Below, one piece after another: positions 6,701 to 20,527 of a DNA stretch of 64,000 nucleotides (position 1 is the first letter of the stretch; each line of letters starts with the position of its first letter). The stretch is taken from positions 1 through 64,000 of the forward strand of contig JAAXHJ010000011.1 in the NCBI GenBank assembly GCA_012270965.1, written 5' to 3'. A program made the translations under genes and the position numbers. Source of the stretch: Candidatus Palauibacter poriticola. Its GTDB lineage: Bacteria > Gemmatimonadota > Gemmatimonadetes > Palauibacterales > Palauibacteraceae. The notes under the pieces are model-generated. The model made no database searches, was not told where the DNA came from, and saw nothing but the letters and a program-made list of their open reading frames with translations.

Positions 6701-8119
6701 CTAGCTGCCGAAGCGGGCGAGGATCCAGTCGGAGATTGTTTCAAGGAAGCCGTCCACGAACCGCTTCTCGAGCAGCGCGTACTCGGCCGGGGATCCGGTC
6801 GTTGCGGCTTGGAAGAGATGATTGGCGCGCGGGAGCACATCGACCGTCACGTCCGGGTTCCCGGCCAGCGCCTCTTCAAGCGGCGGGCGGTTCTGGTCGA
6901 CGAGAACCTGGAGGTCGAGCCCGCCGAAGAGCGCGAGCACCGGCACCCGCGTGTCCCGGAGAGCCTCGACCGGATCGTACGTGAGGAAGAAGCGGAACCA
7001 AGGGGTCTCGACGCGGTTGATCTGCCCGTCGATCTGGGCCTGTACGTAGGAGTTCACGTCGGAGATCGCCGCGCGCTGCCCCTCGGACAGCGTCTCTATG
7101 CCCTCGCGGATCGCGGCCCCAAGCTCCTCGCGATACACCTCGAGGTCTTCTCCCGCCTCAAGGGCCGCGAACAAACGGCGCTGGAAGTCGGTGTTCCATT
7201 CGATGCGATCCTCGGGCACGCCGCTCGCGCGCTGAATGGCGGCGGATTGCTCGTAGAGGATCTCGGTGCCGGGCACGGTCGAACCGGCCAGCAGCACGGC
7301 GAAGCGGACGGCATCCGAACGCGAGGCCGCAAGGGACGCCACGATGGCCCCCTCGCTGTGTCCCACGAAGCCGATGCGCGCGGGGTCGACGTCGGGATGC
7401 TCCGAGAGCCGCGCGAGTCCCGCCAGCGCATCCCCCGCAAAGTCGGAAGTGGTGGAGGAGGAGACGCTGCCGGTCGAACCGCCGACGCCGCGGTCGTCGT
7501 AGCGGAGGACGGCGCTGCCCTGCCGTGTGAGGTGATCGGAAAGGAGGCGGAAGACGGGGAAACCGGCCACGACCTCGTCCCGGTCCTGGGGGCCCGACCC
7601 CGTGATGAGGACGACGCCCGGGAACGGTCCCGTCCCCTCCGGCAGCGTCAGCGTGCCCTCGAGGTGGACGTCGCCGTTCTCGAACGAGACCTCTTCCGCT
7701 CGGTAGGGTACCGGCTCCTCCGCCTCCGCTTCCGGGAGATCGGCCCGCGACGCGGAGAACGTGCCGGTCACGGCTCCTTGGGTGAACTCCCCCTCGATGG
7801 CGTCGCCGCTAAGGGCTCCGTCCCACACCGCGAGACCGATCGGGACATCGAGTTCGAAGTGCACGCGGCCGTCCGCGTAGGACACGGCGGTGAGGGGAAG
7901 CCCCAGCGCGCCCTGCACCGGGATGTCCATGGTGGCGGAGAATCCTCCGTCCACGCGCTCGAAGGTGACCGCGAAGGGCAGCTCACCCGTTGGGAGAACG
8001 ACGGACCCCTCCCACCTGCCCTCGACGCCGCCAGTTCCCTCAAGGCCCGAATCCGGTTCCTGCGCCAGCGCCGGAGAAGCGAGCACACACCCGGCGGCCA
8101 CGAGCATTCTCAGGGCCAC
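6701..8119 (-). CDS. Secreted alpha/beta hydrolase with N-terminal beta domain
   Basis: About 472 residues from GTG 8119; an ATG at 8107 is an alternative. A signal peptide (LVAAGCVLASPALAQ) is followed by a roughly 110-residue beta-rich domain (EGRWEGSVVLPTGELPFAV). The alpha/beta hydrolase domain has an oxyanion segment (LITGSGPQDRDE), the strand VLRYDDRGVGGS, the nucleophile elbow GFVGHSEGA (Ser), an acid in LALFGGLDLQV and the His in PRANHLFQ. This arrangement matches EstA-like and dienelactone-hydrolase-like esterases found with M20 peptidases. It starts three bases after the YbjQ-like gene within one operon. Substrate unknown. Confidence 0.8.
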   Translation of the reverse strand: MALRMLVAAGCVLASPALAQEPDSGLEGTGGVEGRWEGSVVLPTGELPFAVTFERVDGGFSATMDIPVQGALGLPLTAVSYADGRVHFELDVPIGLAVWDGALSGDAIEGEFTQGAVTGTFSASRADLPEAEAEEPVPYRAEEVSFENGDVHLEGTLTLPEGTGPFPGVVLITGSGPQDRDEVVAGFPVFRLLSDHLTRQGSAVLRYDDRGVGGSTGSVSSSTTSDFAGDALAGLARLSEHPDVDPARIGFVGHSEGAIVASLAASRSDAVRFAVLLAGSTVPGTEILYEQSAAIQRASGVPEDRIEWNTDFQRRLFAALEAGEDLEVYREELGAAIREGIETLSEGQRAAISDVNSYVQAQIDGQINRVETPWFRFFLTYDPVEALRDTRVPVLALFGGLDLQVLVDQNRPPLEEALAGNPDVTVDVLPRANHLFQAATTGSPAEYALLEKRFVDGFLETISDWILARFGS

Positions 8120-8121
8120 GA

Positions 8122-8442
8122 TCAGCTCTCCTCGACCTTGACGGCGGAGCCGTAGACCACGATCTCGGCGGTGCCTCCCAGGATGTAGGAGGTGGAGAAG
8201 CGGACACAGAGGATCGCGTTCGCGCCGGCCGCCGCCGCCTCGCCCTCCATCCGATCCACCGCCTGTTCCCGCGCTTCGGCCATCATCTTCGTGTACTCCT
8301 GGATCTCGCCCCCCACGATCGTCTTCAGGCCGGCGAGAATGTCGCGGCCCAGGTGGCGCGCACGGATCGTACTGCCGCGGACGAGGCCGAACTCCTCTAC
8401 GATCCGGTATCCGGCGAGGTCGTTTCGGGAGGTGATGATCAT
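8122..8442 (-). CDS. YbjQ/UPF0145 family protein
   Basis: 106 residues, the full usual length. The sequence runs from LAGYRIVEEFGLVRGSTIRA to GANAILCVRFSTSYI, the conserved core of the UPF0145 (YbjQ) family, which forms small beta-rich pentamers and is sometimes called a heavy-metal-binding domain. Its ATG overlaps the stop of the anti-sigma-like gene (ATGA at 8439-8442). Its place directly after a sigma/anti-sigma pair suggests membrane or envelope stress function, but no biochemical role is established. Confidence 0.85.
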   Translation of the reverse strand: MIITSRNDLAGYRIVEEFGLVRGSTIRARHLGRDILAGLKTIVGGEIQEYTKMMAEAREQAVDRMEGEAAAAGANAILCVRFSTSYILGGTAEIVVYGSAVKVEES

Positions 8443-8909
8443 CGGACGACATCCTTGTAGGGGTCTTTCTTCTGCACGAACAGGCGCTCGCGAACGACGG
8501 AGACGAAGAGGACCACGAAGCCCGCGATGAGGGCGAGCATCCCCCAGCGAATGTACGCGGGCATCGTCGTGTCCCGAATCAGCTCAGCGACGGCGGTCCA
8601 CAGCGCCCACGTCCCCACGATGATCGTTCCCAGCGAGACCAGAACCCAGCCGAGGCCGCGTTCGAGCCGGCGATAGACGTGTTCCCAGTAGCTGTCCCAA
8701 GTTTCCTCCGGCGGTTTCAGCGGACTCATGGTGTCGGTAACCTCCTTCAGGCGCTGGTACGTCGCCAGTTCGTCGCGAAGACCCGGGTTCTCCTCAAGCG
8801 CCGACTCGAGTTCGAGCCGTCCCTTTCCCGTAATCTCCCGATCCAGTTCGGCCATCATCAGATGGCGGACCCGCTCGTCGCCGGGCGGGTTCGCGTTCCT
8901 CTCGCTCAT
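8439..8909 (-). CDS. Putative anti-sigma factor, membrane-bound
   Basis: About 156 residues. The cytoplasmic N-terminus (RVRHLMMAELDREITGKGR, then LESALEENPGLRDELATY) resembles the helical anti-sigma domain of ECF regulators but shows no HxxxCxxC zinc motif. Two helices follow (WVLVSLGTIIVGTWALW and GMLALIAGFVVLFVSVV). The ATG at 8909 is chosen because GGGGAGGTG lies six bases upstream. It directly follows the ECF sigma gene. The assignment rests on position and topology; it could be another kind of membrane regulator. Confidence 0.6.
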   Translation of the reverse strand: MSERNANPPGDERVRHLMMAELDREITGKGRLELESALEENPGLRDELATYQRLKEVTDTMSPLKPPEETWDSYWEHVYRRLERGLGWVLVSLGTIIVGTWALWTAVAELIRDTTMPAYIRWGMLALIAGFVVLFVSVVRERLFVQKKDPYKDVVR

Positions 8910-9023
8910 CGTCCGCACCTCCCCGCTCGCCGGGGCGCGTTCCTCTCGCTCATCGCCCGCACCTCCCCGCTCGCCGCGGGCGCATTCTCCTCACTCATCG
9001 CCCGCACCTCCCCGCTGGCCGGG
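8893..9023. repeat. Three tandem copies of a ribosome-binding-site/start-codon cassette
   Basis: Three roughly 43-47 base copies lie at the sigma/anti-sigma junction. On the minus strand each contains GCGGGGAGGTGCGG, then ATGAG(C/T)GAG. The first copy overlaps the end and stop of the sigma gene; the third is the actual start of the anti-sigma gene. The second could start a 30-residue peptide. Confidence 0.75.
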
Positions 9024-9593
9024 TCCCGCCCCCGCCGTTTCGATCTCGCGCGCGAGAGACCGCCGCGCCCGATAGAGACGCGACATCACGGTGCCGATGG
9101 GAATTCCCAGTAACTCGGCGATCTCCCGGTAACGCAGCTCCTCGAACTCTCGCAGGACGAGCGTCTCGCGCTCCCGCTCGGGCAGACGTTCGATGGCCGA
9201 ACCGACCTGTTCGCGCAACTCGGCGCGCTCCATCGCCTGATCGGGGCCGAGAGGGCGCCTGCCCATCGTCGTATCCGTAAGCCAACTGCCCGCCTTCTCG
9301 AGTTTCAGCCGGCGCGACCGCTGGTCCCGCGTATGGTTGAAGCAGAGCCGTCGGATGATCTGGTACAGCCAGGGGAAGAAGGGACGTTCGGGGTCGATCC
9401 TGGCCCGCGCGCGGAACGCCCTCGCGAAGGCCTCCTGGGAGAGGTCGAGGGCATCGTCGTGGTTCCCGACGAGGCCGAGTGCGGTATAGTAGGCGCGCTG
9501 CATGTATCGTGAGACGAGTTCGCCGAAGGCCGCACGCTCGCCTCGCTGCGCGCGAAGAACGAGCATGCGGTCGGTTGCCTCCGAGCTGTTCAA
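8991..9593 (-). CDS. ECF-type RNA polymerase sigma factor
   Basis: About 200 residues. Region 2 (AAFGELVSRYMQRAYYTAL, then DDALDLSQEAFARAF and FFPWLYQIIRRLCFNHTRD) and region 4 (LPERERETLVLREFEELRYR, then GIPIGTVMSRLYRARRSL) are both complete, as in RpoE-like ECF factors. No ATG fits; TTG at 9593 gives the usual short lead before region 2, while ATG 9566 would cut into it. It heads the operon that runs through the anti-sigma-like protein to transporters and hydrolases, so it probably controls that operon. The inducing signal is not visible. Confidence 0.9.
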   Translation of the reverse strand: MNSSEATDRMLVLRAQRGERAAFGELVSRYMQRAYYTALGLVGNHDDALDLSQEAFARAFRARARIDPERPFFPWLYQIIRRLCFNHTRDQRSRRLKLEKAGSWLTDTTMGRRPLGPDQAMERAELREQVGSAIERLPERERETLVLREFEELRYREIAELLGIPIGTVMSRLYRARRSLAREIETAGAGPGQRGGAGDE

Positions 9594-9706
9594 TGATGGC
9601 TCCCATGGTCGCGGGCACCGGTGTGGACCTGTGGTGATTGTTCGCTACGCGAGGGTTACACGAAGCCGCGAGGTTTATTTCGCGGATCAAGGAATCGAGA
9701 CACAGG

Positions 9707-10141
9707 ATGGACGAGTTCCCCGCCAGAGCAACCCTGCAACCCGAAATCGTTCCCTCGCGCTGGATGCTCATCCGCGACGTGGCCGTGTTTCAGTTGAAGC
9801 TGGTCCTCGATGGGTTGAGAGACGCGTTGCTGGTGCCGATCTCGCTCTTCGTCGCCCTCCTCGACGTACTCGGCGTCGGGCCCCGCGCGGGCTGGCAGTT
9901 CTACGCGCTGCTGGAGTGGGGGCGGCGGACGGAGTACTGGATCAACCTCTTCGGCGCCACCGACCACGTCCGCCCCCTGACGACGCCTCCGCGGCCCGGG
10001 GTCGATGCGCTCGTCGACCGTCTGGAGCGGCTGGCGGTGCAGGAGTACGAGAGGGGCGGGATCACGGCCACAACGAAGGATGCCGTGGACCGTGCCCTCG
10101 AAGGCCTTGGCAAGACCCCGCTTCGGCGCCGAGAGTGGTGA
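9707..10141 (+). CDS. Conserved hypothetical protein with amphipathic/hydrophobic helix
   Basis: 144 residues from ATG 9707; a longer frame opens at 9638. A hydrophobic stretch (LLVPISLFVALLDVLGVG) sits in the N-terminal third. The remainder is soluble (WQFYALLEWGRRTEYWINLF, then VDRLERLAVQEYERG). No family is recognised. It lies alone between the divergent sigma operon and the convergent end of the his operon. Confidence 0.5.
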   Translation: MDEFPARATLQPEIVPSRWMLIRDVAVFQLKLVLDGLRDALLVPISLFVALLDVLGVGPRAGWQFYALLEWGRRTEYWINLFGATDHVRPLTTPPRPGVDALVDRLERLAVQEYERGGITATTKDAVDRALEGLGKTPLRRREW

Positions 10142-10227
10142 AGCGCAGCGTTCAGGCGAGATGCAGCGCCGCTCGAACGCAGCGGGGCTCTCTTCGCGGC
10201 CTACTACCGCCGTACGAGGCGCGGACC

Positions 10228-12873
10228 TTACGAGGCGCGGATCTTCCAAGGGCGATCTGTCGGGTCCGTCGCCGTGAGCCGGAGTTCCGCCGAACGCGCG
10301 TGCGCTTCCAGTCCCTCCAGTCGGGCGAGCGCGGCGCTGTCCCGCAGCAGGTCCTCGTAGGCGTCGTCCGCGCACGACAGCGACAGCCACGTCGGCCGGC
10401 GCAGGAACGAGAACACCGAGAGTCCCGAGTCGAACGCCGCGGCGCCCGATGTGGGAAGGGTGTGGTTCGGTCCCGCTCCGTAGTCGCTGGCCGCCTCGGG
10501 CGTGGCCGCCCCTAGGAAGAGCGATCCGTAGCGGTGGAGGCGGGGAGCCAGCGACTCGGCTAGTTCGCCGTGCAGGTGCAGGTGCTCCGGCGCCACGGCG
10601 TCGGAGATGGCGGCGGCCTCGTCGCGGCTGGACGCGAGGAGGGCGCCGCCGGCCGCCAGGGCGCGGCGCGCGATCGGCGCGGTCGGTAGCGCGGCCAACT
10701 GCCGCTCGGCCTCGTCGCGGACGGCCTCGACGGTCGCTTCGTCGAAGGCGCACAACAGCGGGACGGCGTCGGGGTCGTGCTCGGCCTGGGCGAGCAGATC
10801 GGCCGCGACGCGGGACGGTGCCGCATCCGGCGAGGCGACGACGAGCAGCTCGGAAGGGCCGGCGATGGTGTCGAGGCCGACCCGGCCGTAGAGGAGACGC
10901 TTGGCTGCGGTGACAAACCGGTTGCCCGGCCCCACGATCTTCTCGCAGCGGGAGACGCCGCCGACGCCGAAGGCGAGCGCGCCGATCGCCTGCGCGCCGC
11001 CGGTGGCGAGCAGGCCGTCCGCGCCGCCGATGAACGCCGCGGCCTGGACCGCCGCCGTCGGGCGCGGCGATGCGGCCCACAGCCCGCCCACGCCCGCCAC
11101 CCTCGCGGGGATGGTGGTCATGAGCACCGAGGACGGGAGCGGGAAGCGGCCTCCGGGCGCGTAACATCCGGCCGTCTCGACGGGTACGAGGCGATGCCCG
11201 CCGCGTCCGCCCGCGATCGGCGTCTCGAGGTCGGTCGCGGATGCCCGCTGGGCCTCCGCGAAGGCGCGGATCCGGTCTGCCGCGCGGCGCAGCAGCGCAC
11301 GGTCGCCGGGGGGGAGCGCCTCCGTAGCGCGCCCGAGAGCCGAGCGGTCGAGGAGCAGGTCGTCGTCCGGCTCAAGGTCGCCGAGCCGCTCGGCATGTTC
11401 GCGCAGCGCCGGCTCTCCGCGCCGCTCGACATCGTCGAGGATCGTCCCCGCGACCTCGAGGGTCGCCGGATCGAGGGCCGGCGAGCGCACCGCCCGCACC
11501 GCCTCCTCGACGCCGATCGGCGGCAGGATCCCGCCCGCCGGAGCGGCGGCGGGTGCCCGAGCCGTCCGACCGGTCGGCCCTCCCGGCGGACTCGGAACCC
11601 GCCGGCGCACCTTGAGGGCGCGCCGTTCAAGTTCATGACGTACGTCTTCGAGGGAGCCGCCGGCCTTCACGAGCCGCGTGAGGGCGAAGTAATGCAGGTC
11701 CGCGAACTCCGCCACCGCGTCCGCCTTCGATCCTGCTTCCGCCAGTTCCCGCGCCTCCTCGACGAGCTTCCCCCGCAACAGCTCCGGATCCCCGGCGAGC
11801 CGCGTGGTCAACGAGCCCGGCTGCGGGTCGGCGAGTCGCGCGCGGACGCGCGTCTCGAGGCCGGACAGGCCCATGCCGGACGAGGATGTCGGTTTCGCCG
11901 ACATCCGGGACGGCGCGGCGTCGAAACAGGTCCGGGCGCCCGTGTGACAGAAGCCGGTCCCGTGCTGCCGCACCGTGAAGCGCAGCGTGTCGCGGTCACA
12001 GTCCACGGCCACGCGGACGAGCTCCTGCGTGGCGCCGGACGTCTCGCCTTTCCTCCACAGCCCCCGCGAGCGGCTCTGATAGACGCCGCGCCGTTCCCCG
12101 ACGGCCGCGCGCAGGCTCTCCGCGCTCGACCACGCGAGCCCGAGCGCCCGGCCGGCCGTGTCCTCGACCAGCGTCGCCCACAACCCGTCGGCCCGGTCGG
12201 ACCTCAGCGGAGCCGAGATGGCGTCGGCCAGATCCATGCGCCCGCTGTAGATCGCCATCCCCACCTGCGCGTCCGCACCCATACGGTCCAGTGCCGCAAT
12301 CTCCGAAACCGCGCGGACGCCACCCGCCACCGTCACCCTTGCGGATCCCGCGGCTTCGACGAGGGCGGCGACGCGATCCAGCGGGATCCCGCCCAGCGTG
12401 CCCTCGACCTCTACGAAGGTGATCAGATAGCCGTCCACAAGACCGTCGAGTTCCTCCAGCCGCCCGATGACGTCGCGCCCCGTCCCGCGCCGCCAACCTT
12501 CGACGACGACCTCGCCATCGCGTGCGTCGAGCGCCGCGATGACGCGTTCCGGGGGGAGTCCGCCCAGGATCTCCGGATGCGCCGCCGTGCCCAGGATCAC
12601 CCGCCGCGCCCCCGCGTCGAGCCAGTCGAGCGCCGCCTCGCGGGAGCGAATGCCGCCGCCTACCCGACACGCCGCGAGCGGGAGCAGCTCCCGGATGAGG
12701 GCGGCGTTGTCTCCGCGCCCGAGCGCCGCGTCGAGGTCGATGATCGCGACTTCCCCCGCGACGGCGAACCTCTCGGCCAGCGGCCGTGGGTCGCCGGCAT
12801 CGATTTCAAGCGTGGAGCCCTGCCGGAGCTGGACGGCCCGGCCACCCATCAGGTCGATGGATGGGATGATCAT
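10228..12873 (-). CDS. hisA-hisIE-hisD: HisA-HisI-HisE-HisD fusion, four-domain histidine biosynthesis enzyme
   Basis: 881 residues from ATG 12873, which overlaps the hisF stop (ATGA). Residues 1-222 are HisA ([11 protein letters not shown] with catalytic Asp7, ALDARDG with Asp116, TVAGGVR). Residues 223-320 are HisI ([16 protein letters not shown], metal Asps and Cys in [16 protein letters not shown]). Residues 335-430 are HisE ([20 protein letters not shown]). Residues 448-881 are HisD ([34 protein letters not shown] with Glu763/His764, [10 protein letters not shown], zinc Asp797 and His858). A Pro/Ala-rich linker joins HisE to HisD. No stop or frame change is seen at any junction. It would catalyse steps 2-4 and the last two steps of the pathway. 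HisI-HisE-HisD fusion is known from fungal HIS4; a HisA head on it is not known to me. The usual 'RDGT' loop of HisA is EVEGT here. Confidence 0.93.
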
Positions 12874-13637
12874 CGGCGTACCGCGACCCCGAGCTGCTGC
12901 AGCCGATCCTTGAGTCTGCCGATCGACCAGTCGCCCTGATGGAAGATCGATGCCGCGAGGACCGCGTCGGCTCCGGCCTCGATCGCCGCGCACATGTGAC
13001 CCGCATGGGCTCCCCCGCCGGAAGCCACGATCGGCACCGGCACGGCCTCGCGGATCGTTTCGATCAGCGCCAGATCGTAACCGCTCCGCGTACCGTCGCG
13101 GTCGAAGCTCGTGAGGAGGATCTCACCCGCGCCGAGTTCCGCCGCGCGGCGACTCCAATCCGCGGCGTCGAGACCCGCGAGTCGCTTACCCGAGTGCGTC
13201 AAGACCCCGAAGCCGCTTGGACACGCCTCGTCCGACACCGCGCCGGCGTCCAGCGCCAGGACGGCGCACTGGGCCCCGAACCGGGTCGCGATCTCCGACA
13301 GGAGTTCCGGCCGCTCGACCGCCGCGGTGTTCACGGCGACCCGGTCCGCCCCCGCCTCCAGCAGCGCGCCCGCGTCTTCCGCCGTCCGCACGCCGCCGCC
13401 GACCGTCAGCGGAATCGAGATCTCGTCGCGCACCCGGCCCACCGTTTCGAACCGGGCCACTCTCCCCTCCGCCGTGGCCGAGACATCGAGGATCACGATT
13501 TCGTCCGCCCCCTCGCGCTCGTAGCGCCGAGCGAGCCGGGCGGGGTCGCCCTGGTCCTCGAGGTTGTCGAAGCGGACGCCCTTCACGACCCTGCCGTCCC
13601 TCACGTCCAGGCACGGAATAACCCGAACGTTCAGCAT
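12870..13637 (-). CDS. hisF: Imidazole glycerol phosphate synthase cyclase subunit
   Basis: 255 residues, usual length. It is a (beta/alpha)8 barrel with both catalytic aspartates, Asp11 ([11 protein letters not shown]) and Asp130 (AVLALDAG), and phosphate-binding loops ([19 protein letters not shown]). With HisH-derived ammonia it converts PRFAR to IGP and AICAR. It overlaps hisH by seven bases and the fusion gene by four, so HisH, HisF and the fusion are translated in order. Confidence 0.97.
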
Positions 13638-14314
13638 GCCGCCACGAGCGTGGACCGTGGCGCGCGCCGTTCGAACGCGGCTGCCGCGCCCGGCGATTGT
13701 TCGAGCCAGCGCTTCAAAAGACCCGCGCCGACCTTCCCCGACAACTCCGGGTGGAACTGGCAGGCGAGGACTCCGCCGCGCTCCAGCCCCGCCACGAAGC
13801 GGCTCCCGTGCCGCCCCATCGCGGCGGTCCAGCCCGCGGGACCGGCCTCAAGCCCGTAGGAGTTGGCGAAGTAGACGACGGACGACCTCAGGAACGTGGC
13901 CCCGGCCGGAGCTGCGACGCGGTTCCAGCCCAACTGGGGAAGACGGCGGCTCTCCGCCAGCCGGACCACGCGGCCCGGTACGCACCCAAGCCCGGCGGTG
14001 TCCGGAGCTTCCTCGCTCTCCTCGCACAGGAGTTGAAGTCCGAGACAGATGGCGAGCGTCGGCCGCCCCTCCTCGACGCGCCGGCGGACGGCCGCCCCCC
14101 ATCCACGCCGGCGAAGCTCCGCCATGCCCCCGGCGAACGACCCCACGCCCGGGAGGACGACGTAGGCGGCGCTCGAAATGCCGGCTGCGGAGTCCAGCAG
14201 CCGCGGGGTTTTCCCCAACCGCCGGAAAGCGGCCGCCACCGCCTCGAGGTTTGCCACGCCCGTCGGAACGATCCCCACATCGTCCGGGCCCGTTGCCACC
14301 CGCGCGGCGCTCAT
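13631..14314 (-). CDS. hisH: Imidazole glycerol phosphate synthase glutaminase subunit
   Basis: 227 residues. A class I glutamine amidotransferase with nucleophile Cys90 (TLAICLGLQLL), catalytic His188 and Glu190 (ACQFHPE) and the oxyanion segment VLPGVGSF. It hydrolyses glutamine and channels ammonia to HisF. Its ATG overlaps the hisB stop (ATGA) and its stop overlaps the start of hisF. A C-terminal tail of about 20 residues after the last helix is longer than usual. Confidence 0.95.
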   Translation of the reverse strand: MSAARVATGPDDVGIVPTGVANLEAVAAAFRRLGKTPRLLDSAAGISSAAYVVLPGVGSFAGGMAELRRRGWGAAVRRRVEEGRPTLAICLGLQLLCEESEEAPDTAGLGCVPGRVVRLAESRRLPQLGWNRVAAPAGATFLRSSVVYFANSYGLEAGPAGWTAAMGRHGSRFVAGLERGGVLACQFHPELSGKVGAGLLKRWLEQSPGAAAAFERRAPRSTLVAAC

Positions 14315-15000
14315 CGAGACACCCCCTCGAGTGCCCCGGCCGCCGAGTCCTCCTCCACGTCCGCGGCGGGCAACTCGCTTGCTCCGAGAACCCCCTTCGT
14401 ACTCGGGACTCCCGCGGCTGAGCGCTCCGCCACCGCCTCGGCGAGGGCGAGACCGAACGCCTTGAAGCCGGCCTCCGCGCGATGGTGGTCGTTCTCGCCG
14501 CGGATGACATCCAGGTGAAGCGTCATGCCTCCCGCCGTCGCCAGCGAGGCGAAGAAATGAGTGAGGTTCTCCGTTGCGACGGTCCCCAGCATCTCGCGCC
14601 GGAGGCCGAGATCCACCTTGGCGAAGGGGCGCCCGGAGAGGTCCACGACCGCCCGGGCAAGCGCCTCATCGAGGGGCGCGTAGGCGTGCCCGAAGCGGCG
14701 AATCCCCCGCCGGTCCCCGAGCGCGTCGCGGATGACCGACCCGACGACGAGTCCGCAGTCTTCCACCGTGTGGTGATCGTCGATGTCGATGTCGCCCCGA
14801 GCGCGCAGATCCAGCGTCATGCCGCCGTGAAAGACGGCGGCGCCGAGCATGTGATCGAGAAACGCCAGCCCCGTATCGACGCGACTGCGTCCCCGGCTGT
14901 CCAGCTCCAGCCGAGCTTCGATGCGGGTCTCGAGCGTCCGCCGGGACCGTTCTCCCACCCGCCCGGTGGCGGGACGACTCTCTCCGGAGTTCGCGTTCAT
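14311..15000 (-). CDS. hisB: Imidazoleglycerol-phosphate dehydratase
   Basis: 229 residues from ATG 15000, chosen because AAGGAG lies six bases upstream; an upstream start at 15027 would overlap hisC. Duplicated metal-binding motifs are seen: FLDHMLGAAVFHGG with DDHHTVEDCG, and the C-terminal ENDHHRAEAGFKAFG. This is the monofunctional dehydratase type with no histidinol-phosphatase domain. No separate histidinol phosphatase lies in the operon, so that step must be encoded elsewhere. An acidic tail of about 25 residues follows the normal family end (STKGVL). Confidence 0.96.
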   Translation of the reverse strand: MNANSGESRPATGRVGERSRRTLETRIEARLELDSRGRSRVDTGLAFLDHMLGAAVFHGGMTLDLRARGDIDIDDHHTVEDCGLVVGSVIRDALGDRRGIRRFGHAYAPLDEALARAVVDLSGRPFAKVDLGLRREMLGTVATENLTHFFASLATAGGMTLHLDVIRGENDHHRAEAGFKAFGLALAEAVAERSAAGVPSTKGVLGASELPAADVEEDSAAGALEGVSR

Positions 15001-15010
15001 GGAATCTCCT

Positions 15011-16027
15011 TCACGAGATGTGTCCAAACGTCGTGTCGAGCACGCGGAGGAGGTGGCAGAACGTCGCCTCGTCCCCCGGAAGCGTGATCCGGACCAGGTC
15101 CGGCAGGTTCGGATAGCGTCGGATCGCGATGCCCCGTTGCCGAACGCCGCGGTACAGGGCGGCGGCCCGGTCGGTGGAGGCGAGCACGAAGTTCGCCTGC
15201 GACTCGAAGGGCTCCGCCCCCGACGCGCGCAGTGCCGAGACGAGCCTCTCGCGCTCGCGGCGCACGGCGGCGACGTACGTCGAGGTGACCGGGTCTCCCA
15301 ACGCCAGCGCCTGTTCCGCCAACCAGATGGAGGGGGCCGAGAGAGGGAAGGGCGCCCCGCCGGCCCGGAGGTCCGCGACCGCCGCGCGCGGACCCAGTAC
15401 GAAACCCACGCGAAGCCCGGCGAGACCCCAGGCCTTGGACAGCGTCCGTACGACGAGGACGTTGTCGCGCCGCAGCAGTTCCGGTGTCGGATCGCGGTCG
15501 GCGAACTCGACGTAAGCGAGATCCGCGAGCAACACCGCGTCGTCCGGCAGCCGGTCGGAGATCTCCAACAGCCGGCGGGCCGGGGCGACTTGGCCGCTGG
15601 GGTTGTGTGGCGACACGACGGCGACGAGTCCCGTCCGCTCGCTCAGCAGGTCGAGCGTGCGCGCGAGAGGCGCCGGATCGTCAAGCGTGCGGATGGCCCG
15701 GACGCGACCGCCCGCGAGCGACGCGAAGGCCGGGATCATCTCAAACGTGGGATTCACGGTGATCAGTTCCCGTCCCCCGGTGAGATAGCGGCGACACACG
15801 CGGTCGATCGCGTCATCCGCTCCCGCCGTGGCCAGGACGCGACCGGCGTCCAAGTCCCAGGCGGCGCCGAACGACTCCTCCAGACCGGCCGCCTCCGGAT
15901 ACCGCGCCAGGGCGCTTTCCGGTACGCGCGAGAGGAGACGGACGAGTTCCGGCGCCGGAAACAGGCGCTCGTTGTGATCGAGCCGAAGCCGTTCGCCGGG
16001 CGGTGCGGCCACCGTCAGCCCGCTCAT
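15011..16027 (-). CDS. hisC: Histidinol-phosphate aminotransferase
   Basis: 338 residues, slightly short for the family. A fold-type I PLP enzyme: RLDHNERLF at the N-terminus, SPHNPSGQ binding the cofactor, and PLP-lysine Lys198 in VVRTLSKAWGLAGLRVG. It converts imidazole acetol phosphate plus glutamate to histidinol phosphate. The ATG overlaps the hisG stop (ATGA at 16024-16027); hisB follows after ten bases. Confidence 0.95.
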   Translation of the reverse strand: MSGLTVAAPPGERLRLDHNERLFPAPELVRLLSRVPESALARYPEAAGLEESFGAAWDLDAGRVLATAGADDAIDRVCRRYLTGGRELITVNPTFEMIPAFASLAGGRVRAIRTLDDPAPLARTLDLLSERTGLVAVVSPHNPSGQVAPARRLLEISDRLPDDAVLLADLAYVEFADRDPTPELLRRDNVLVVRTLSKAWGLAGLRVGFVLGPRAAVADLRAGGAPFPLSAPSIWLAEQALALGDPVTSTYVAAVRRERERLVSALRASGAEPFESQANFVLASTDRAAALYRGVRQRGIAIRRYPNLPDLVRITLPGDEATFCHLLRVLDTTFGHIS

Positions 16028-16890
16028 GCGACGATCTGTCCCGGCGTCGTCACGACGAGATCCGTACCACCGCGCGCCTTCACCCGCGGGATCAGGCCCG
16101 GCAGAGCCTCGCGCAGCACGGCGACCCGGATGGCGTAGCCCTCTTCGCCGTGCAGACGCGACACCGTCGGTTTGCGCATGCAGGGGAGCACGGCCACCAG
16201 ATCATCCAGCCGCAAGGCGTCCACGTTGACTTCAAGCATGACCCGCTGCCGGGCTTCCACGACCGACTTCAGCACCACGACCAGGTCCTCGATACGCTCG
16301 CGGTGCCGCGGATCCTCGAGCGCCCGCGGGTTCGCGTAGAGGCGCGTCGATGAGGTCATGAGTTCGTCGACGACCTCGAGCCCGTTGGCGTCGAGCGTCG
16401 CACCCGTCGCGCTGTTGTCGACGATCACGTCGGCGTCCTCCGGCGGGAACACCTCCGTCGCGCCGTACGACCGCACGAGCGTCGCGTCGAGTCCCCGATC
16501 ATCGATCCAGCGCGAGGAGAGCCGCGCGTATTCGGACGCCACCGTGAGGCGGCGGCCGGCGGCGCGCAGTCCCGCCCGGGCGAGTTGCGCGGGGGCGGCG
16601 GCCACGACGCGCACCGGGTCGAGTCCCGTGTCAAGAAGCTCGACCAACGATCCGTTCAGTTCCGCCACCCAGTCGGCCCCCGCGAATCCCAGGTCGCGAG
16701 ATCCCGCATGCAGCATCTCCACGACGTTCTGCGGCTTGAGCAACTTGGCGCCGAGGCCCGGGATCGAGATGACCGGGCGGTAGCGGCGTTCCCCGAGATC
16801 CACGCGCACGCCGGCGGCGGTCAGCAGTTCGAGTACGCCGGACTGCATCCGCCCCTTGGGCAGAGCGAGTCTTGTCGTTTCGTGGGTCAT
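16024..16890 (-). CDS. hisG: ATP phosphoribosyltransferase, long form
   Basis: 288 residues from ATG 16890 (MTHETTRLALPKGRM). The catalytic domain includes RLALPKGRMQSG, FAGADWVAEL and the PRPP-binding loop DVIVDNSATGATLDANGL. A C-terminal ACT-like regulatory domain (about 210-288, ending in DLVVTTPGQIV) makes it the hexameric long form that is inhibited by histidine and needs no HisZ. It catalyses the first committed step. The first gene of the operon, it lies 42 bases downstream of the attenuator terminator. Confidence 0.95.
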   Translation of the reverse strand: MTHETTRLALPKGRMQSGVLELLTAAGVRVDLGERRYRPVISIPGLGAKLLKPQNVVEMLHAGSRDLGFAGADWVAELNGSLVELLDTGLDPVRVVAAAPAQLARAGLRAAGRRLTVASEYARLSSRWIDDRGLDATLVRSYGATEVFPPEDADVIVDNSATGATLDANGLEVVDELMTSSTRLYANPRALEDPRHRERIEDLVVVLKSVVEARQRVMLEVNVDALRLDDLVAVLPCMRKPTVSRLHGEEGYAIRVAVLREALPGLIPRVKARGGTDLVVTTPGQIVA

Positions 16891-16931
16891 GTCCTGGGCT
16901 CGGTAGGCCGACGCCGGGGGGGGGCCGCAAC

Positions 16932-16958
16932 AAAAAAGCCGGCCCACCCCGGGCCGGC
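16932..16958 (-). terminator. Intrinsic terminator of the his attenuator
   Basis: On the minus strand GCCGGCCC, a five-base loop, and GGGCCGGC form an eight-pair GC stem at 16958-16938, followed directly by six T residues (16937-16932). It lies 41 bases after the leader-peptide stop and 42 bases before hisG. This is the expected place for the conditional terminator of a histidine attenuation system. GGCCGG at 17008-17003, inside the leader gene, is complementary to CCGGCC in the first arm and could form an antiterminator. Confidence 0.88.
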
Positions 16959-16999
16959 ATCGATCGTTCGCAACCTCTGTCCTGGATACGGCTAGACGA

Positions 17000-17062
17000 T
17001 CACCGGCCTCCGCGCACGCGGTGGTAATAGTGGTGGCCAAAATACGGATGGGTGTTCGTCAT
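17000..17062 (-). CDS. hisL: Histidine operon leader peptide
   Basis: A 20-codon frame (ATG 17062 to TGA 17000) upstream of hisG. It begins MTNTHPYFGHHYYH, so four of its first fourteen codons are His (CAT, CAC, CAC, CAC), mixed with Tyr. It is followed by a GC-rich terminator hairpin with a T run. By analogy with the enterobacterial hisL system, ribosome stalling at the His codons under histidine limitation should prevent terminator formation. No clear ribosome-binding site precedes the ATG, and the putative promoter would start transcription near it, so the leader may be translated leaderless. Confidence 0.88.
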   Translation of the reverse strand: MTNTHPYFGHHYYHRVRGGR

Positions 17063-17176: not shown

Positions 17177-18178
17177 ATGATCGGACCTCCGGCCGCCAGC
17201 CTCCGACCCCCGACGCCGACGCGGAGCCGCGAGACGCGGGCCCGCGTCGCCCCTTGGATCGAACGCACGCCGGTGAGACGCTGGATTCCCGATCGCGGCG
17301 TCGCTTCGCTGCCCGCGGGAGTCGAGCTTTTTCTCAAGTTGGAACTCTTCCAGCGCACCGGTTCCTACAAGGTTCGGGGCGCCCTGAACAACGTCCTCGG
17401 CGCGGACGCGGAGACGCTGCGGCGAGGCGTTACGGCCGTGAGCGCCGGGAACCATGCCATTTCCGTGGCTTACGCGGCCCGAGCCGCCGGCACGACCGCC
17501 AAGGTCGTCATGCTTTCGTCCGCGAACCCGGCCCGCGTCGCGCGCTGCCGGAACTTCGGGGCCGAAATCGAGTTCGCGGAGGACGGGGCGGGCGGTTTTT
17601 CACGCATGGAGGAGATCGCCCGGCAAGAGGGTCGGCTCGGGATCCATCCGTTCGAGGGGGAGGCGACCGTTCTCGGCACTTCGACCGTGGGTCTCGAGGT
17701 CACGGAACAACTCCCCGACCTGGATGCGCTCGTCGTCCCCATCGGCGGCGGAGGTCTCATCTCCGGCACGTCGAGCATCGTCAAGCAGCTTGTGCCCGCG
17801 TGCGCGGTCTACGGGGTGGAACCCGTCGGCGCCGACTCGATGCGACGCAGTCTCGATGCGGGCGAGCCGGTGGTGCTCGATCGCATCGATACGATCGCCG
17901 ACAGCCTCGGCGCCCCCCACGCGGCGCCGTACAGCTTCGGACTCGTGCAGCGCTACGTGGACGATGTCGTGCTCGTCGATGACGACGCGATCCGCGCCGC
18001 CCTGAAGGCGTTGTTCCTGGACGCGAAGCTGGTCGCCGAACCCGCGTCCGCCGCTCCCCTCGCTGCCGTGTGCGGTCCCCTCCGGGAGCGGCTGGAAGGC
18101 CGTCGCGTGGGCCTCATCCTCTCCGGCTCGAACATCGACCTGGACACCTTCGGCGCGCACATGCGAGCTGCCGGGTGA
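17177..18178 (+). CDS. Threonine/serine dehydratase-like PLP enzyme
   Basis: 333 residues, fold-type II PLP family. PLP lysine Lys65 lies in GSYKVRGAL; the substrate loop is SAGNHAISVAYAA; the phosphate-binding loop is IGGGGLISG; and the C-terminal SGSNIDLDTF binds the pyridine ring. It deaminates threonine (to 2-oxobutyrate) or serine (to pyruvate). It lacks the C-terminal ACT domain of biosynthetic IlvA, so it is of the short catabolic or serine-racemase-like type. It is divergent from the his leader across a 114-base promoter region. Confidence 0.85.
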   Translation: MIGPPAASLRPPTPTRSRETRARVAPWIERTPVRRWIPDRGVASLPAGVELFLKLELFQRTGSYKVRGALNNVLGADAETLRRGVTAVSAGNHAISVAYAARAAGTTAKVVMLSSANPARVARCRNFGAEIEFAEDGAGGFSRMEEIARQEGRLGIHPFEGEATVLGTSTVGLEVTEQLPDLDALVVPIGGGGLISGTSSIVKQLVPACAVYGVEPVGADSMRRSLDAGEPVVLDRIDTIADSLGAPHAAPYSFGLVQRYVDDVVLVDDDAIRAALKALFLDAKLVAEPASAAPLAAVCGPLRERLEGRRVGLILSGSNIDLDTFGAHMRAAG

Positions 18179-18217: not shown

Positions 18218-20527
18218 GTGAAAGGCAAGAGAGGCGGGAGAAGAATCCGGCGATGGCTGGGGATCCTGGCCGGCGTCGTCGTGGCGGGTTGGCTCGCGTA
18301 TCTCAGCTTCGAGACGAAGGTTGCGCGGGACTTCGAAGCGATCGACGCCGTCTCCCCGACCCGCGTCGTCGCTCGACCGCTGGTCCTGCGTCCGGGCGAC
18401 CGCGTGGAACCCCGGCAGGTCGCGAACCATCTGACGCGCGTCGGTTATCGGTCCGTCTCGAAACGCACGCCCGAGCGCGGAGAGTTCGCGTGGCGCGGTG
18501 GAGAACTGAGACTCGGTCGGCGGGCGTTGCGCCTGGGAGGCTACACGGATCCCGGCGGCACCGTGCGCGTCCGCTTCCGAGGAACCTCCGGCGCGGGTCG
18601 CATAACGTCGATTCGGAACGCGGACGGGCAGAGCCTCGCCACGCTCATCCTGGATCCCGAGGTCATCGGGGCCGTGCCCGGCGAGCGCGGCCGGGACCGC
18701 ATCCCGGTAAGGCTCGAAGAAGTACCCGCCCACCTGATCGACGCTCTCCTGACCGTGGAGGATCGCCGCTTCTACGAACACGGTGCGCTGGATCCCCGCC
18801 GCATCGCGGGCGCCGTGCTCTCGAACCTGCGCCAGGGGCGGCTCGCTGAAGGCGGCAGCACGATCACCCAACAACTCGCGCGCACCCTCTTCCTCTCGAC
18901 TGATCGCACGCTGGTGCGAAAGGTTCGCGAGGCGGCCATCGCCGTGGCTCTGGAGAGGCGGTTCTCCAAGCGGCGCCTCCTCGAAGCGTATGTGAACCAC
19001 ATCTACCTCGGCCAGGATCGGGGCGTGGCGATTCACGGCTTCGGTCGAGCGGCACCGTTCTTCTTCGACCGAGATGTCTCGGAACTGACGCTGGGACAGT
19101 CCGCCATGCTCGTGGGAATCATCCGAGGGCCCAACATGTATGCGCCGCACCGGCACCCGGAGCGCGCCCGGGCCCGGCGGGACATGGTGCTGCGGCAGAT
19201 GCACGCGCTCGGACACATCGACGCGAACCGGCTAAGGGCCGAGTTTGAAACGAGTCCGACCCTCCGCTCGCCGCGGGAGCGTAGCGCCGAAGCCCGCTGG
19301 TATCTGGACTACCTGCGGAGAGAACTAGGGTCCGGAGAACGGCCGCTGAGTTTGGACGGCGCGGGTTTGACGGTCGTGTCGTCTCTGGACCCGCAGGTAC
19401 AGCGGGCGGCGGAGCGGGCCGTGTCGGACGGAATCCAACGGCTCGAGCGCATCCGTCCCCGCCTCGCGAAGCAGACGGGGCCTCTGCAGGCGGCGCTCGT
19501 GGCCCTCGATCCGCGCAGCGGCGATATCCTGGCGATGGTCGGCGGACGGTCATACGGCACGTCGCAGTTCAACCGCGCCGCGGACGCGCTGCGTCAGCCG
19601 GGGAGTGCGTTCAAGCCGATTGTGGCGCTGGCCGCGTTGGATCCGCGAGCTGACGTCCCCTTCACCCTGGCCTCCACGCTCCGAGATGAGCCGCTGGCGC
19701 TCGAGACGCCGGCAGGAATGTGGCGACCCTCCAACGCGGATCGCGAGTTCTTGGGGCCCGTCAGGCTACGCGACGCGCTGGAGGGGTCGCGCAACGTGCC
19801 GTTCGCCCGTCTGGGACTCGCCGTGGGCCCCGAACGGATCGTGGAGACCGCGCGGCGGCTGGGCGTCGAGAGCCCCCTGGCACCCTATCCGAGTCTCGCG
19901 CTCGGTGCCTCGGAGGTCACGCTCCTCGAGCTGACGGCGGCCTACGCGGTGCTGGCGGCGGAGGGGAGACGGGCGCCTCCGCGCGCCGTGCGGGCCGTTC
20001 TGGGTCGGGAGGGCGAGGCCATCCGGCCGGCCGAGCTTCGCCGCGAGACCGTCGTCAGCCCGGCGGAGGCGTACGTCGTGACCTCCGCCCTGCGCGGAGT
20101 GGTGGAGCGCGGCACGGGGATCGGCGTGCGCGCGGCCGGGTACAGGGGGCCCATCGCGGCGAAGTCCGGGACCACGAACGGCTCGCGTGATGCTTGGTTC
20201 GTAGGTTACACGCCGGAGGTGGCCGTCGGCGTCTGGGTCGGCTTCGATGACGGGACGCGTCTGGGCTTGTCCGGGTCGGGGGCCGCCCAGCCGATCTTCA
20301 CGGATTTCCTCATCCGAGTCCTCGGACCCGACGGCGGAAGCGACTTCCGCTTTCCCGAAGGCGTGGAATGGGTCGAGGTCGAGCCCCGAACGGGTCTGCG
20401 CGCCGGGTGGGGATGTCGGGGCCAGCCCGAACTCTTCCTCGCCGGCACGGCGCCCGAGGCTTCTTGCGGCTACCCGCTCCGAGGGTGGCGATACGGAAGG
20501 CCGTTGCGTACGTCGCCGCGGCGGTGA
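18218..20527 (+). CDS. mrcB: Bifunctional penicillin-binding protein, PBP1b type
   Basis: 769 residues. One N-terminal transmembrane helix (about 12-30) and a UB2H-like domain (about 45-125; LVLRPGDRVEPRQVANHL) are followed by a GT51 glycosyltransferase with catalytic Glu181 (LTVEDRRFYEHG, EGGSTITQQLART). The transpeptidase domain has SAFK with nucleophile Ser463, SRN at 524 and KSGTT at 649. It polymerises lipid II and cross-links peptidoglycan in the periplasm. The UB2H region marks it as PBP1b rather than 1a or 1c. The start is GTG 18218; the ATG two bases earlier is out of frame. Confidence 0.92.
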   Translation: MKGKRGGRRIRRWLGILAGVVVAGWLAYLSFETKVARDFEAIDAVSPTRVVARPLVLRPGDRVEPRQVANHLTRVGYRSVSKRTPERGEFAWRGGELRLGRRALRLGGYTDPGGTVRVRFRGTSGAGRITSIRNADGQSLATLILDPEVIGAVPGERGRDRIPVRLEEVPAHLIDALLTVEDRRFYEHGALDPRRIAGAVLSNLRQGRLAEGGSTITQQLARTLFLSTDRTLVRKVREAAIAVALERRFSKRRLLEAYVNHIYLGQDRGVAIHGFGRAAPFFFDRDVSELTLGQSAMLVGIIRGPNMYAPHRHPERARARRDMVLRQMHALGHIDANRLRAEFETSPTLRSPRERSAEARWYLDYLRRELGSGERPLSLDGAGLTVVSSLDPQVQRAAERAVSDGIQRLERIRPRLAKQTGPLQAALVALDPRSGDILAMVGGRSYGTSQFNRAADALRQPGSAFKPIVALAALDPRADVPFTLASTLRDEPLALETPAGMWRPSNADREFLGPVRLRDALEGSRNVPFARLGLAVGPERIVETARRLGVESPLAPYPSLALGASEVTLLELTAAYAVLAAEGRRAPPRAVRAVLGREGEAIRPAELRRETVVSPAEAYVVTSALRGVVERGTGIGVRAAGYRGPIAAKSGTTNGSRDAWFVGYTPEVAVGVWVGFDDGTRLGLSGSGAAQPIFTDFLIRVLGPDGGSDFRFPEGVEWVEVEPRTGLRAGWGCRGQPELFLAGTAPEASCGYPLRGWRYGRPLRTSPRR

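What the first reader, a model, noticed from the sequence alone, without database searches (positions are those of the whole stretch)
10228..12873. HisA-HisI-HisE-HisD four-domain fusion
One uninterrupted 881-residue frame carries four enzyme domains with their key catalytic residues. HisIE-HisD fusion is known in fungi (HIS4), and HisIE is common in bacteria; adding HisA at the N-terminus would put steps 2, 3, 4 and the last two steps on one chain. Only HisG, HisH/HisF, HisB, HisC and the phosphatase remain separate. The gene follows hisF by an ATGA overlap, so HisH-HisF and the fusion could form a channelled unit.
Basis: partly seen in the sequence, partly recalled or inferred. Interest (0 to 1): 0.8.

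Follow-up and report, generated by a model that had tools for sequence, protein, structure and literature searches.

The report
Four-in-one histidine enzyme in bacteria
One long bacterial protein appears to carry out five of the ten chemical steps that make histidine, built by adding a fourth enzyme to a three-enzyme chain found in many bacterial groups.

Summary
The fusion is real. One minus-strand gene (12873 down to 10228, 881 residues) carries HisA, HisI, HisE and HisD in that order. It holds the only match to these families in the held genome, apart from the HisA paralogue HisF. It is no assembly error: 13 of 17 genomes of the genus have it whole. Catalytic residues are kept, each domain is under purifying selection, and AlphaFold gives four confident domains with two loose linkers.

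Relatives change the picture. The core is a HisA-HisI-HisE chain (steps 4, 3, 2) in 77 of 80 related loci, from records labelled as ten bacterial phyla; hisF lies directly upstream in 74 of 77. Attached HisD is an extra in seven loci outside the genus. A careful tree rejects one clade of four-domain forms (AU p 0.006); an earlier, poorer tree did not (p 0.57).

Prior art: fungal HIS4 (I-E-D), four archaeal HisA/F-HisIE fusions, and an Acanthamoeba protein with H/F, A, I, E, D and G. My searches found no report of A-I-E or A-I-E-D chains in bacteria. Channelling is untested. New variant of a known kind.

The parts
10228..12873 (-). hisAIED, the four-domain gene (881 aa, ATG start, TAA stop)
12211..12873 (-). 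HisA domain, residues 1-221 (step 4, ProFAR isomerase); passes into HisI with no low-confidence linker
   Evidence: Pfam PF00977 1-213; D7, D116, T152 kept in 48 of 48 rows; pLDDT about 95 through the A-I join
11914..12210 (-). HisI domain, residues 222-320 (step 3, PRA-CH)
   Evidence: Pfam PF01502 246-317; DCDRD, CH and C residues kept in 48 of 48 rows
11869..11913 (-). I-E linker, residues 321-335, disordered, no purifying selection seen
   Evidence: pLDDT under 50 at 322-330; ratio of mean dN to mean dS 1.06 for residues 321-338
11614..11868 (-). HisE domain, residues 336-420 (step 2, PRA-PH)
   Evidence: Pfam PF01503 339-418; acidic residues kept in 48 of 48 rows
11479..11613 (-). E-D linker, residues 421-465, Pro/Ala/Gly-rich, partly disordered
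   Evidence: pLDDT under 50 at 427-445; variable among relatives
10264..11478 (-). HisD domain, residues 466-870 (steps 9-10, histidinol dehydrogenase)
   Evidence: Pfam PF00815 473-866; catalytic and zinc-ligand positions kept in all 11 fused rows
12870..13637 (-). hisF; its TGA shares ATGA with the start of hisAIED
13631..14314 (-). hisH
   Evidence: TIGR01855 over cut-off
14311..14994 (-). hisB dehydratase (start codon uncertain)
   Evidence: PF00475, NF002111
15011..16027 (-). hisC aminotransferase (best NCBIfam hit is hisC, but under its cut-off)
16024..16890 (-). hisG, long form with C-terminal domain (start codon uncertain)
   Evidence: PF01634, PF08029 in ORF 16024-17040

Best explanation
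hisAIED is a working multifunctional histidine enzyme: HisE hydrolyses PR-ATP, HisI opens the ring, HisA isomerises ProFAR to PRFAR (for HisH-HisF, encoded just upstream), and HisD makes the last two oxidations. It grew in two stages. First HisA, HisI and HisE were joined into one chain, which spread with a G-C-B-H-F-[AIE]-D operon. Then, in this genus and in a few other lineages, the adjacent hisD, which usually lies in an overlapping or neighbouring frame just after AIE, was joined in frame through a loose linker. The likely benefit is equal dosage and co-assembly of enzymes, with possible hand-over between the E, I and A steps. Shown: sequence, distribution, residues, selection, predicted fold. 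Inferred: activity, one uncleaved chain, benefit, hand-over.
For: Four domains over cut-off. Sole copies in the held genome of 3.56 Mb, 94.3% complete. Whole in 13 of 17 genus genomes. Ratio of mean dN to mean dS 0.11 (A), 0.14 (I), 0.16 (E), 0.21 (D) among 11 close genomes. Catalytic positions kept. Mean pLDDT 91.6; the fold matches solved HisD and HisA structures. AIE in 77 of 80 related loci, hisF directly upstream in 74 of 77. Of 51 split loci hisD lies within 160 bases in 47. Careful tree: 6 changes between split and four-domain forms, 5-6 over bootstraps, AU p 0.006 against one clade.
Against: No biochemistry, proteomics or reads. The quick tree did not reject one clade (p 0.57; its log-likelihood is 94 lower than the careful tree's), and the careful bootstrap had not settled. 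In-frame GTG codons near the HisD start occur in 10-11 of 12 genus genes, so a second, HisD-only product is not strictly excluded, though they are missing in the most distant copy. pTM 0.56 predicts no fixed arrangement of the domains.
Confidence: 0.88

Rival explanations
1. The open frame is one, but the cell makes separate products: HisD from an internal start, or the chain is cut in the E-D linker.
For: In-frame GTG codons at residues 459 and 462 in 11 and 10 of 12 genus genes, with GAGGAGG just before them in the window gene; a disordered linker.
Against: The distant copy L014 has neither codon, and no ATG is conserved at the join. GTG is a plain valine codon in a GC-rich gene. The fused frame is kept in 13 genomes.
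Confidence: 0.07
2. The E-D fusion arose once and spread by transfer; the seven loci outside the genus are its descendants.
For: The quick tree does not reject one clade (AU p 0.57). Operon transfer across phyla is likely.
Against: The careful tree, with a log-likelihood 94 better, rejects it (p 0.006); 0% of 200 bootstrap trees have one change; linkers differ in length and sequence (35-71 residues as measured).
Confidence: 0.15
3. Assembly or frameshift artefact.
For: Most related loci, and the window genome's relatives, are metagenome bins; four of the seven outside loci (L039, L044, L046, L047, L048 less the supported pair L044/L046, i.e. L039, L047, L048) stand alone on the tree.
Against: 13 of 17 genus genomes agree; L045/L049 and L044/L046 are supported pairs.
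Confidence: 0.01

Closest known systems
Fungal HIS4 (HisI-HisE-HisD), as described in PMC1963479 (passages read)
   Same: I-E-D order with a variable linker before HisD; same activities for steps 2, 3, 9, 10.
   Different: HIS4 has an N-terminal region of unknown function and no HisA; that paper found no HIS4-like protein in prokaryotes in 2007. Here HisA is the N-terminal domain and the host is a bacterium.
Acanthamoeba heptafunctional protein (1,682 aa; PMC6029752, section 19 and passages read)
   Same: Carries IGP synthase/cyclase, ProFAR isomerase, PRA-CH, PRA-PH, histidinol dehydrogenase and HisG; the listing has A, I, E, D in the order seen here, after H/F as in the bacterial operon.
   Different: Eukaryotic, also holds H/F and G on the chain. 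I saw the text listing, not the figure or the sequence, so order along the chain and relatedness are not tested.
Archaeal HisA/F-HisIE fusions (PMC11237513, passages read)
   Same: A HisA/F-family domain fused to HisIE.
   Different: Four metagenomic assemblies only; no HisD; relation to the bacterial A-I-E family not tested.
Bacterial HisIE
   Same: Same I-E order.
   Different: No HisA or HisD; NCBIfam HisIE model scores 110.8 bits against a cut-off of 187 here.

Membership tests
HIS4 (I-E-D fusion) | HisI, HisE, HisD in this order on one chain | tested here: met
HIS4 (I-E-D fusion) | Fungal N-terminal region of unknown function | tested here: not met
   The N-terminus is HisA; so it works like HIS4 in part but is not filed as HIS4
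HIS4 (I-E-D fusion) | Common descent with fungal HIS4 | not testable with these tools
   No eukaryotic sequence collection on hand
HisIE bifunctional enzyme (NF002747) | Whole-protein score over the curated cut-off | tested here: not met
   110.8 bits against 187; both separate Pfam domains pass
HisA-HisI-HisE chain of H-F-[AIE]-D operons | Three domains in one frame at high identity | tested here: met
   77 of 80 related loci; 58 of 395 sampled genomes of the phylum (13 of 138 genera) have the A-I match
HisA-HisI-HisE chain of H-F-[AIE]-D operons | hisF directly upstream | tested here: met
   window; 74 of 77 loci
Acanthamoeba heptafunctional protein | H/F and G on the same chain | tested here: not met
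   hisH, hisF and hisG are separate genes
PriA (HisA that also serves as TrpF) | Genome without its own trpF | tested here: not met
   One PRAI-family gene beside the IGPS gene on contig C81; Foldseek did list PriA among HisA matches
Active histidine enzymes | Enzyme activity of each domain | not testable with these tools
   residues, selection and fold only

The most novel reading that the evidence does not exclude
Bacterial H-F-[A-I-E]-D operons are a fusing series that leads towards the amoeba's seven-activity protein: AIE in many phyla, AIED in several, HisH-HisF in one frame in eight loci, and one Planctomycetaceae locus (L048) with just two chains, [HF] and [AIED]. The Acanthamoeba gene would then be a transferred bacterial operon of this family whose pieces fused, with HisG added.
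Probability: 0.3. Interest if true: 0.65.

Novelty: new variant of a known kind. Interest (0 to 1): 0.45.

Why it matters
Reviews seen here list five his fusions and a HIS4-like chain as absent from prokaryotes (PMC1963479) and leave hisA out of the genes that were fused to others (PMC7284861, PMC10138114; passages). A three-enzyme chain for consecutive steps, common across bacteria, with repeated capture of HisD, makes a natural test of why genes fuse: intermediate hand-over for E-I-A against dosage or neutral joining for D. It also gives annotators a family that single-domain names hide.

Tried and rejected
Rejected: assembly artefact; reading on the + strand; HisA also serving as TrpF. Plasmids: no record holds 80% of the four-domain protein (0 of 99 matching records); four records cover 80% of the A-I-E part at 32-34% identity, three of them annotated as separate hisA and hisI/hisE or hisIE genes and one without listed genes. 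The first tree is discarded: a naming slip put split and four-domain rows in one group, so its group counts mean nothing. The first test of one clade (quick tree) gave p 0.57 and is reported; the careful tree gave 0.006. In one search the tree of HisD alone did not finish. The gene replacement reading was weakened: window HisD and HisG sit with the A-I-E operons apart from the ordinary operons of the class (99*), but the concatenated tree puts the genus beside other Gemmatimonadota A-I-E rows (98*), so which operon was the older in the family is open. Paper search for strings such as hisAIE with match 'anywhere' gave 1,319 papers; the 25 listed were off topic and the rest were not seen.

Rows dropped: the 65-row tree left out 33 of 98 rows: 18 duplicates, near copies of the genus and the remote L107, and 15 without a HisD of over 300 residues.

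Full report
Observation. The 881-residue frame at 10228-12873 is real and lies on the minus strand. It holds HisA, HisI, HisE and HisD, all over Pfam cut-offs. hisF overlaps its start by ATGA, and hisH, hisB, hisC and hisG follow upstream, giving the operon G-C-B-H-F-[AIED].

It is the sole source in the held genome. Family searches of the 3.56 Mb genome (94.3% complete) give one match for HisD, one for HisI, one for HisE, and two for HisA/HisF, of which the other is hisF. One inositol-monophosphatase-family gene could be the phosphatase; that link is recalled, not tested.

It is conserved. 13 of 17 genomes of the genus (own included) have it whole at 64-90% identity; G005 has it on two contigs; G006, G013 and G014 have none, nor a HisD nor a HisB, so the operon seems absent there as a unit, by loss or incomplete bins.

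It looks functional. Chosen catalytic or metal-ligand positions (choice of positions recalled) are kept in all 11 fused rows; over the alignment the A, I and E positions are kept in 48 of 48, and HisD positions in all but two letters at one position and one at another. The ratio of mean dN to mean dS is 0.11, 0.14, 0.16 and 0.21 for A, I, E, D among 11 close genomes, against 1.06 in the I-E linker and 0.46 in the E-D linker. AlphaFold: mean pLDDT 91.6, low only at 322-330, 427-445 and the C-terminus; pTM 0.56, so relative placement is unsure. The A-I join has no low-confidence stretch. Foldseek's first 50 rows are HisD-family and HisA-family structures; HisI and HisE matches were found by sequence.

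Relatives. The other three are a HisD-only contig (L050) and two where HisE was not detected (L107, L111). Record titles place the 77 in ten bacterial phyla plus one bin called Halobacteriales, with ten unassigned; bin labels can be wrong. Two are named isolates, Marinimicrococcus flavescens (L077) and Geminicoccus flavidas (L100), both A-I-E. hisF is directly upstream in 74 of 77, hisH-hisF in 72. These frames are stop-to-stop, by BLAST against window domains.

In the phylum, 58 of 395 sampled genomes (13 of 138 genera) have the A-I match at E up to 1e-40. Thirteen are the genus. Of the other 43, I read 19: none shows HisD in the A-I-E frame, though two contigs end before HisD. The 24 unread have open frames of 398-623 aa, too short for four domains.

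How HisD was joined. Of 51 split loci, HisD is in the -1 frame in 38, +1 in 6, the same frame in 6 and on the other strand in 1; in 47 the aligned part of HisD begins within 160 bases of the A-I-E stop. So a small insertion or deletion, or loss of a stop, is enough. On the careful 65-row tree the label changes 6 times (5-6 over bootstraps; at least 3 forced by starred branches), and one clade is rejected (p 0.006). Against this, the quick tree did not reject it (p 0.57), and the bootstrap had not settled. Label changes cannot tell gain from loss.

History of the operon. Three same-family genomes (G017, G018, G022) carry ordinary separate genes; their HisD is 38-39% and HisG 27-31% identical to the window's, while A-I-E operons of other phyla give 49-59% and 56-67%. 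HisD and HisG trees set the A-I-E operons apart (99*; long branches warned in both). Two his operons therefore alternate in the family; direction is open.

Known work. Passages of PMC1963479 list hisA/hisF, hisIE, hisHF, hisNB and hisIED and say no HIS4-like protein was retrieved from prokaryotes. PMC7284861 and PMC10138114 (passages) name seven fused genes without hisA. PMC8305728 (passages) shows no HisA fusion in Bacteroidota and allies. PMC11237513 (passages) reports HisA/F-HisIE in four archaeal assemblies, and has a sentence that calls the HisIE-HisD fusion present in Bacteria and Eukarya, against PMC1963479. PMC6029752 (section 19 and passages) reports the Acanthamoeba protein. PMC10469786 (passages) calls histidine auxotrophy common in Palauibacterales. 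PMC3901274 (passages) adds nothing on this. Six of my seven paper searches bear on the fusion (one search was for Palauibacter); among the listings and passages seen, none described A-I-E or A-I-E-D in bacteria. Most subscription papers are not held.

Mechanism. HisE, HisI and HisA are steps 2, 3 and 4 (established pathway knowledge), so one chain handles PR-ATP to PRFAR and hands over to HisH-HisF, translated just before. HisD is four steps later; dosage, co-assembly or neutral joining explains it better than channelling. All of this paragraph beyond domain identity is inference.

Verdict: a sound fusion, a new variant of known multifunctional his enzymes. The broader find is the A-I-E family and its repeated gain of HisD.

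Noticed in passing
L048, L059, L064, L069, L071, L080, L098, L017: HisH and HisF lie in one open frame in these eight loci with A-I-E; L048 has both [HF] and [AIED], leaving two chains for six domains.
   Followed up: partly
G006, G013, G014 (same genus): No match to the fusion, to HisD or to HisB; probably lost the his operon or it is missing from the bins.
   Followed up: partly
L107 (Treponemataceae), 7989-10673: A HisA-HisI frame at only 38% identity followed in the same frame, after a stop, by HisD; may be a separate fusion event.
   Followed up: no
L095 (record titled Halobacteriales archaeon): A bacterial-type A-I-E operon on a short contig of an archaeal bin; possibly a binning error.
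   Followed up: no
L061, L066, L075-L077, L079, L084, L087, L089, L096, L100, L109 (Alphaproteobacteria by title): A-I-E without HisD in the fetched stretch, in Geminicoccales and relatives, including two isolate genomes; hisC is also not beside hisG in most.
   Followed up: no
window 17177-18178 (+) and 18218-20527 (+): Flanking genes that look like a threonine-dehydratase-type PLP enzyme and a penicillin-binding protein (read by eye, no family search).
   Followed up: no
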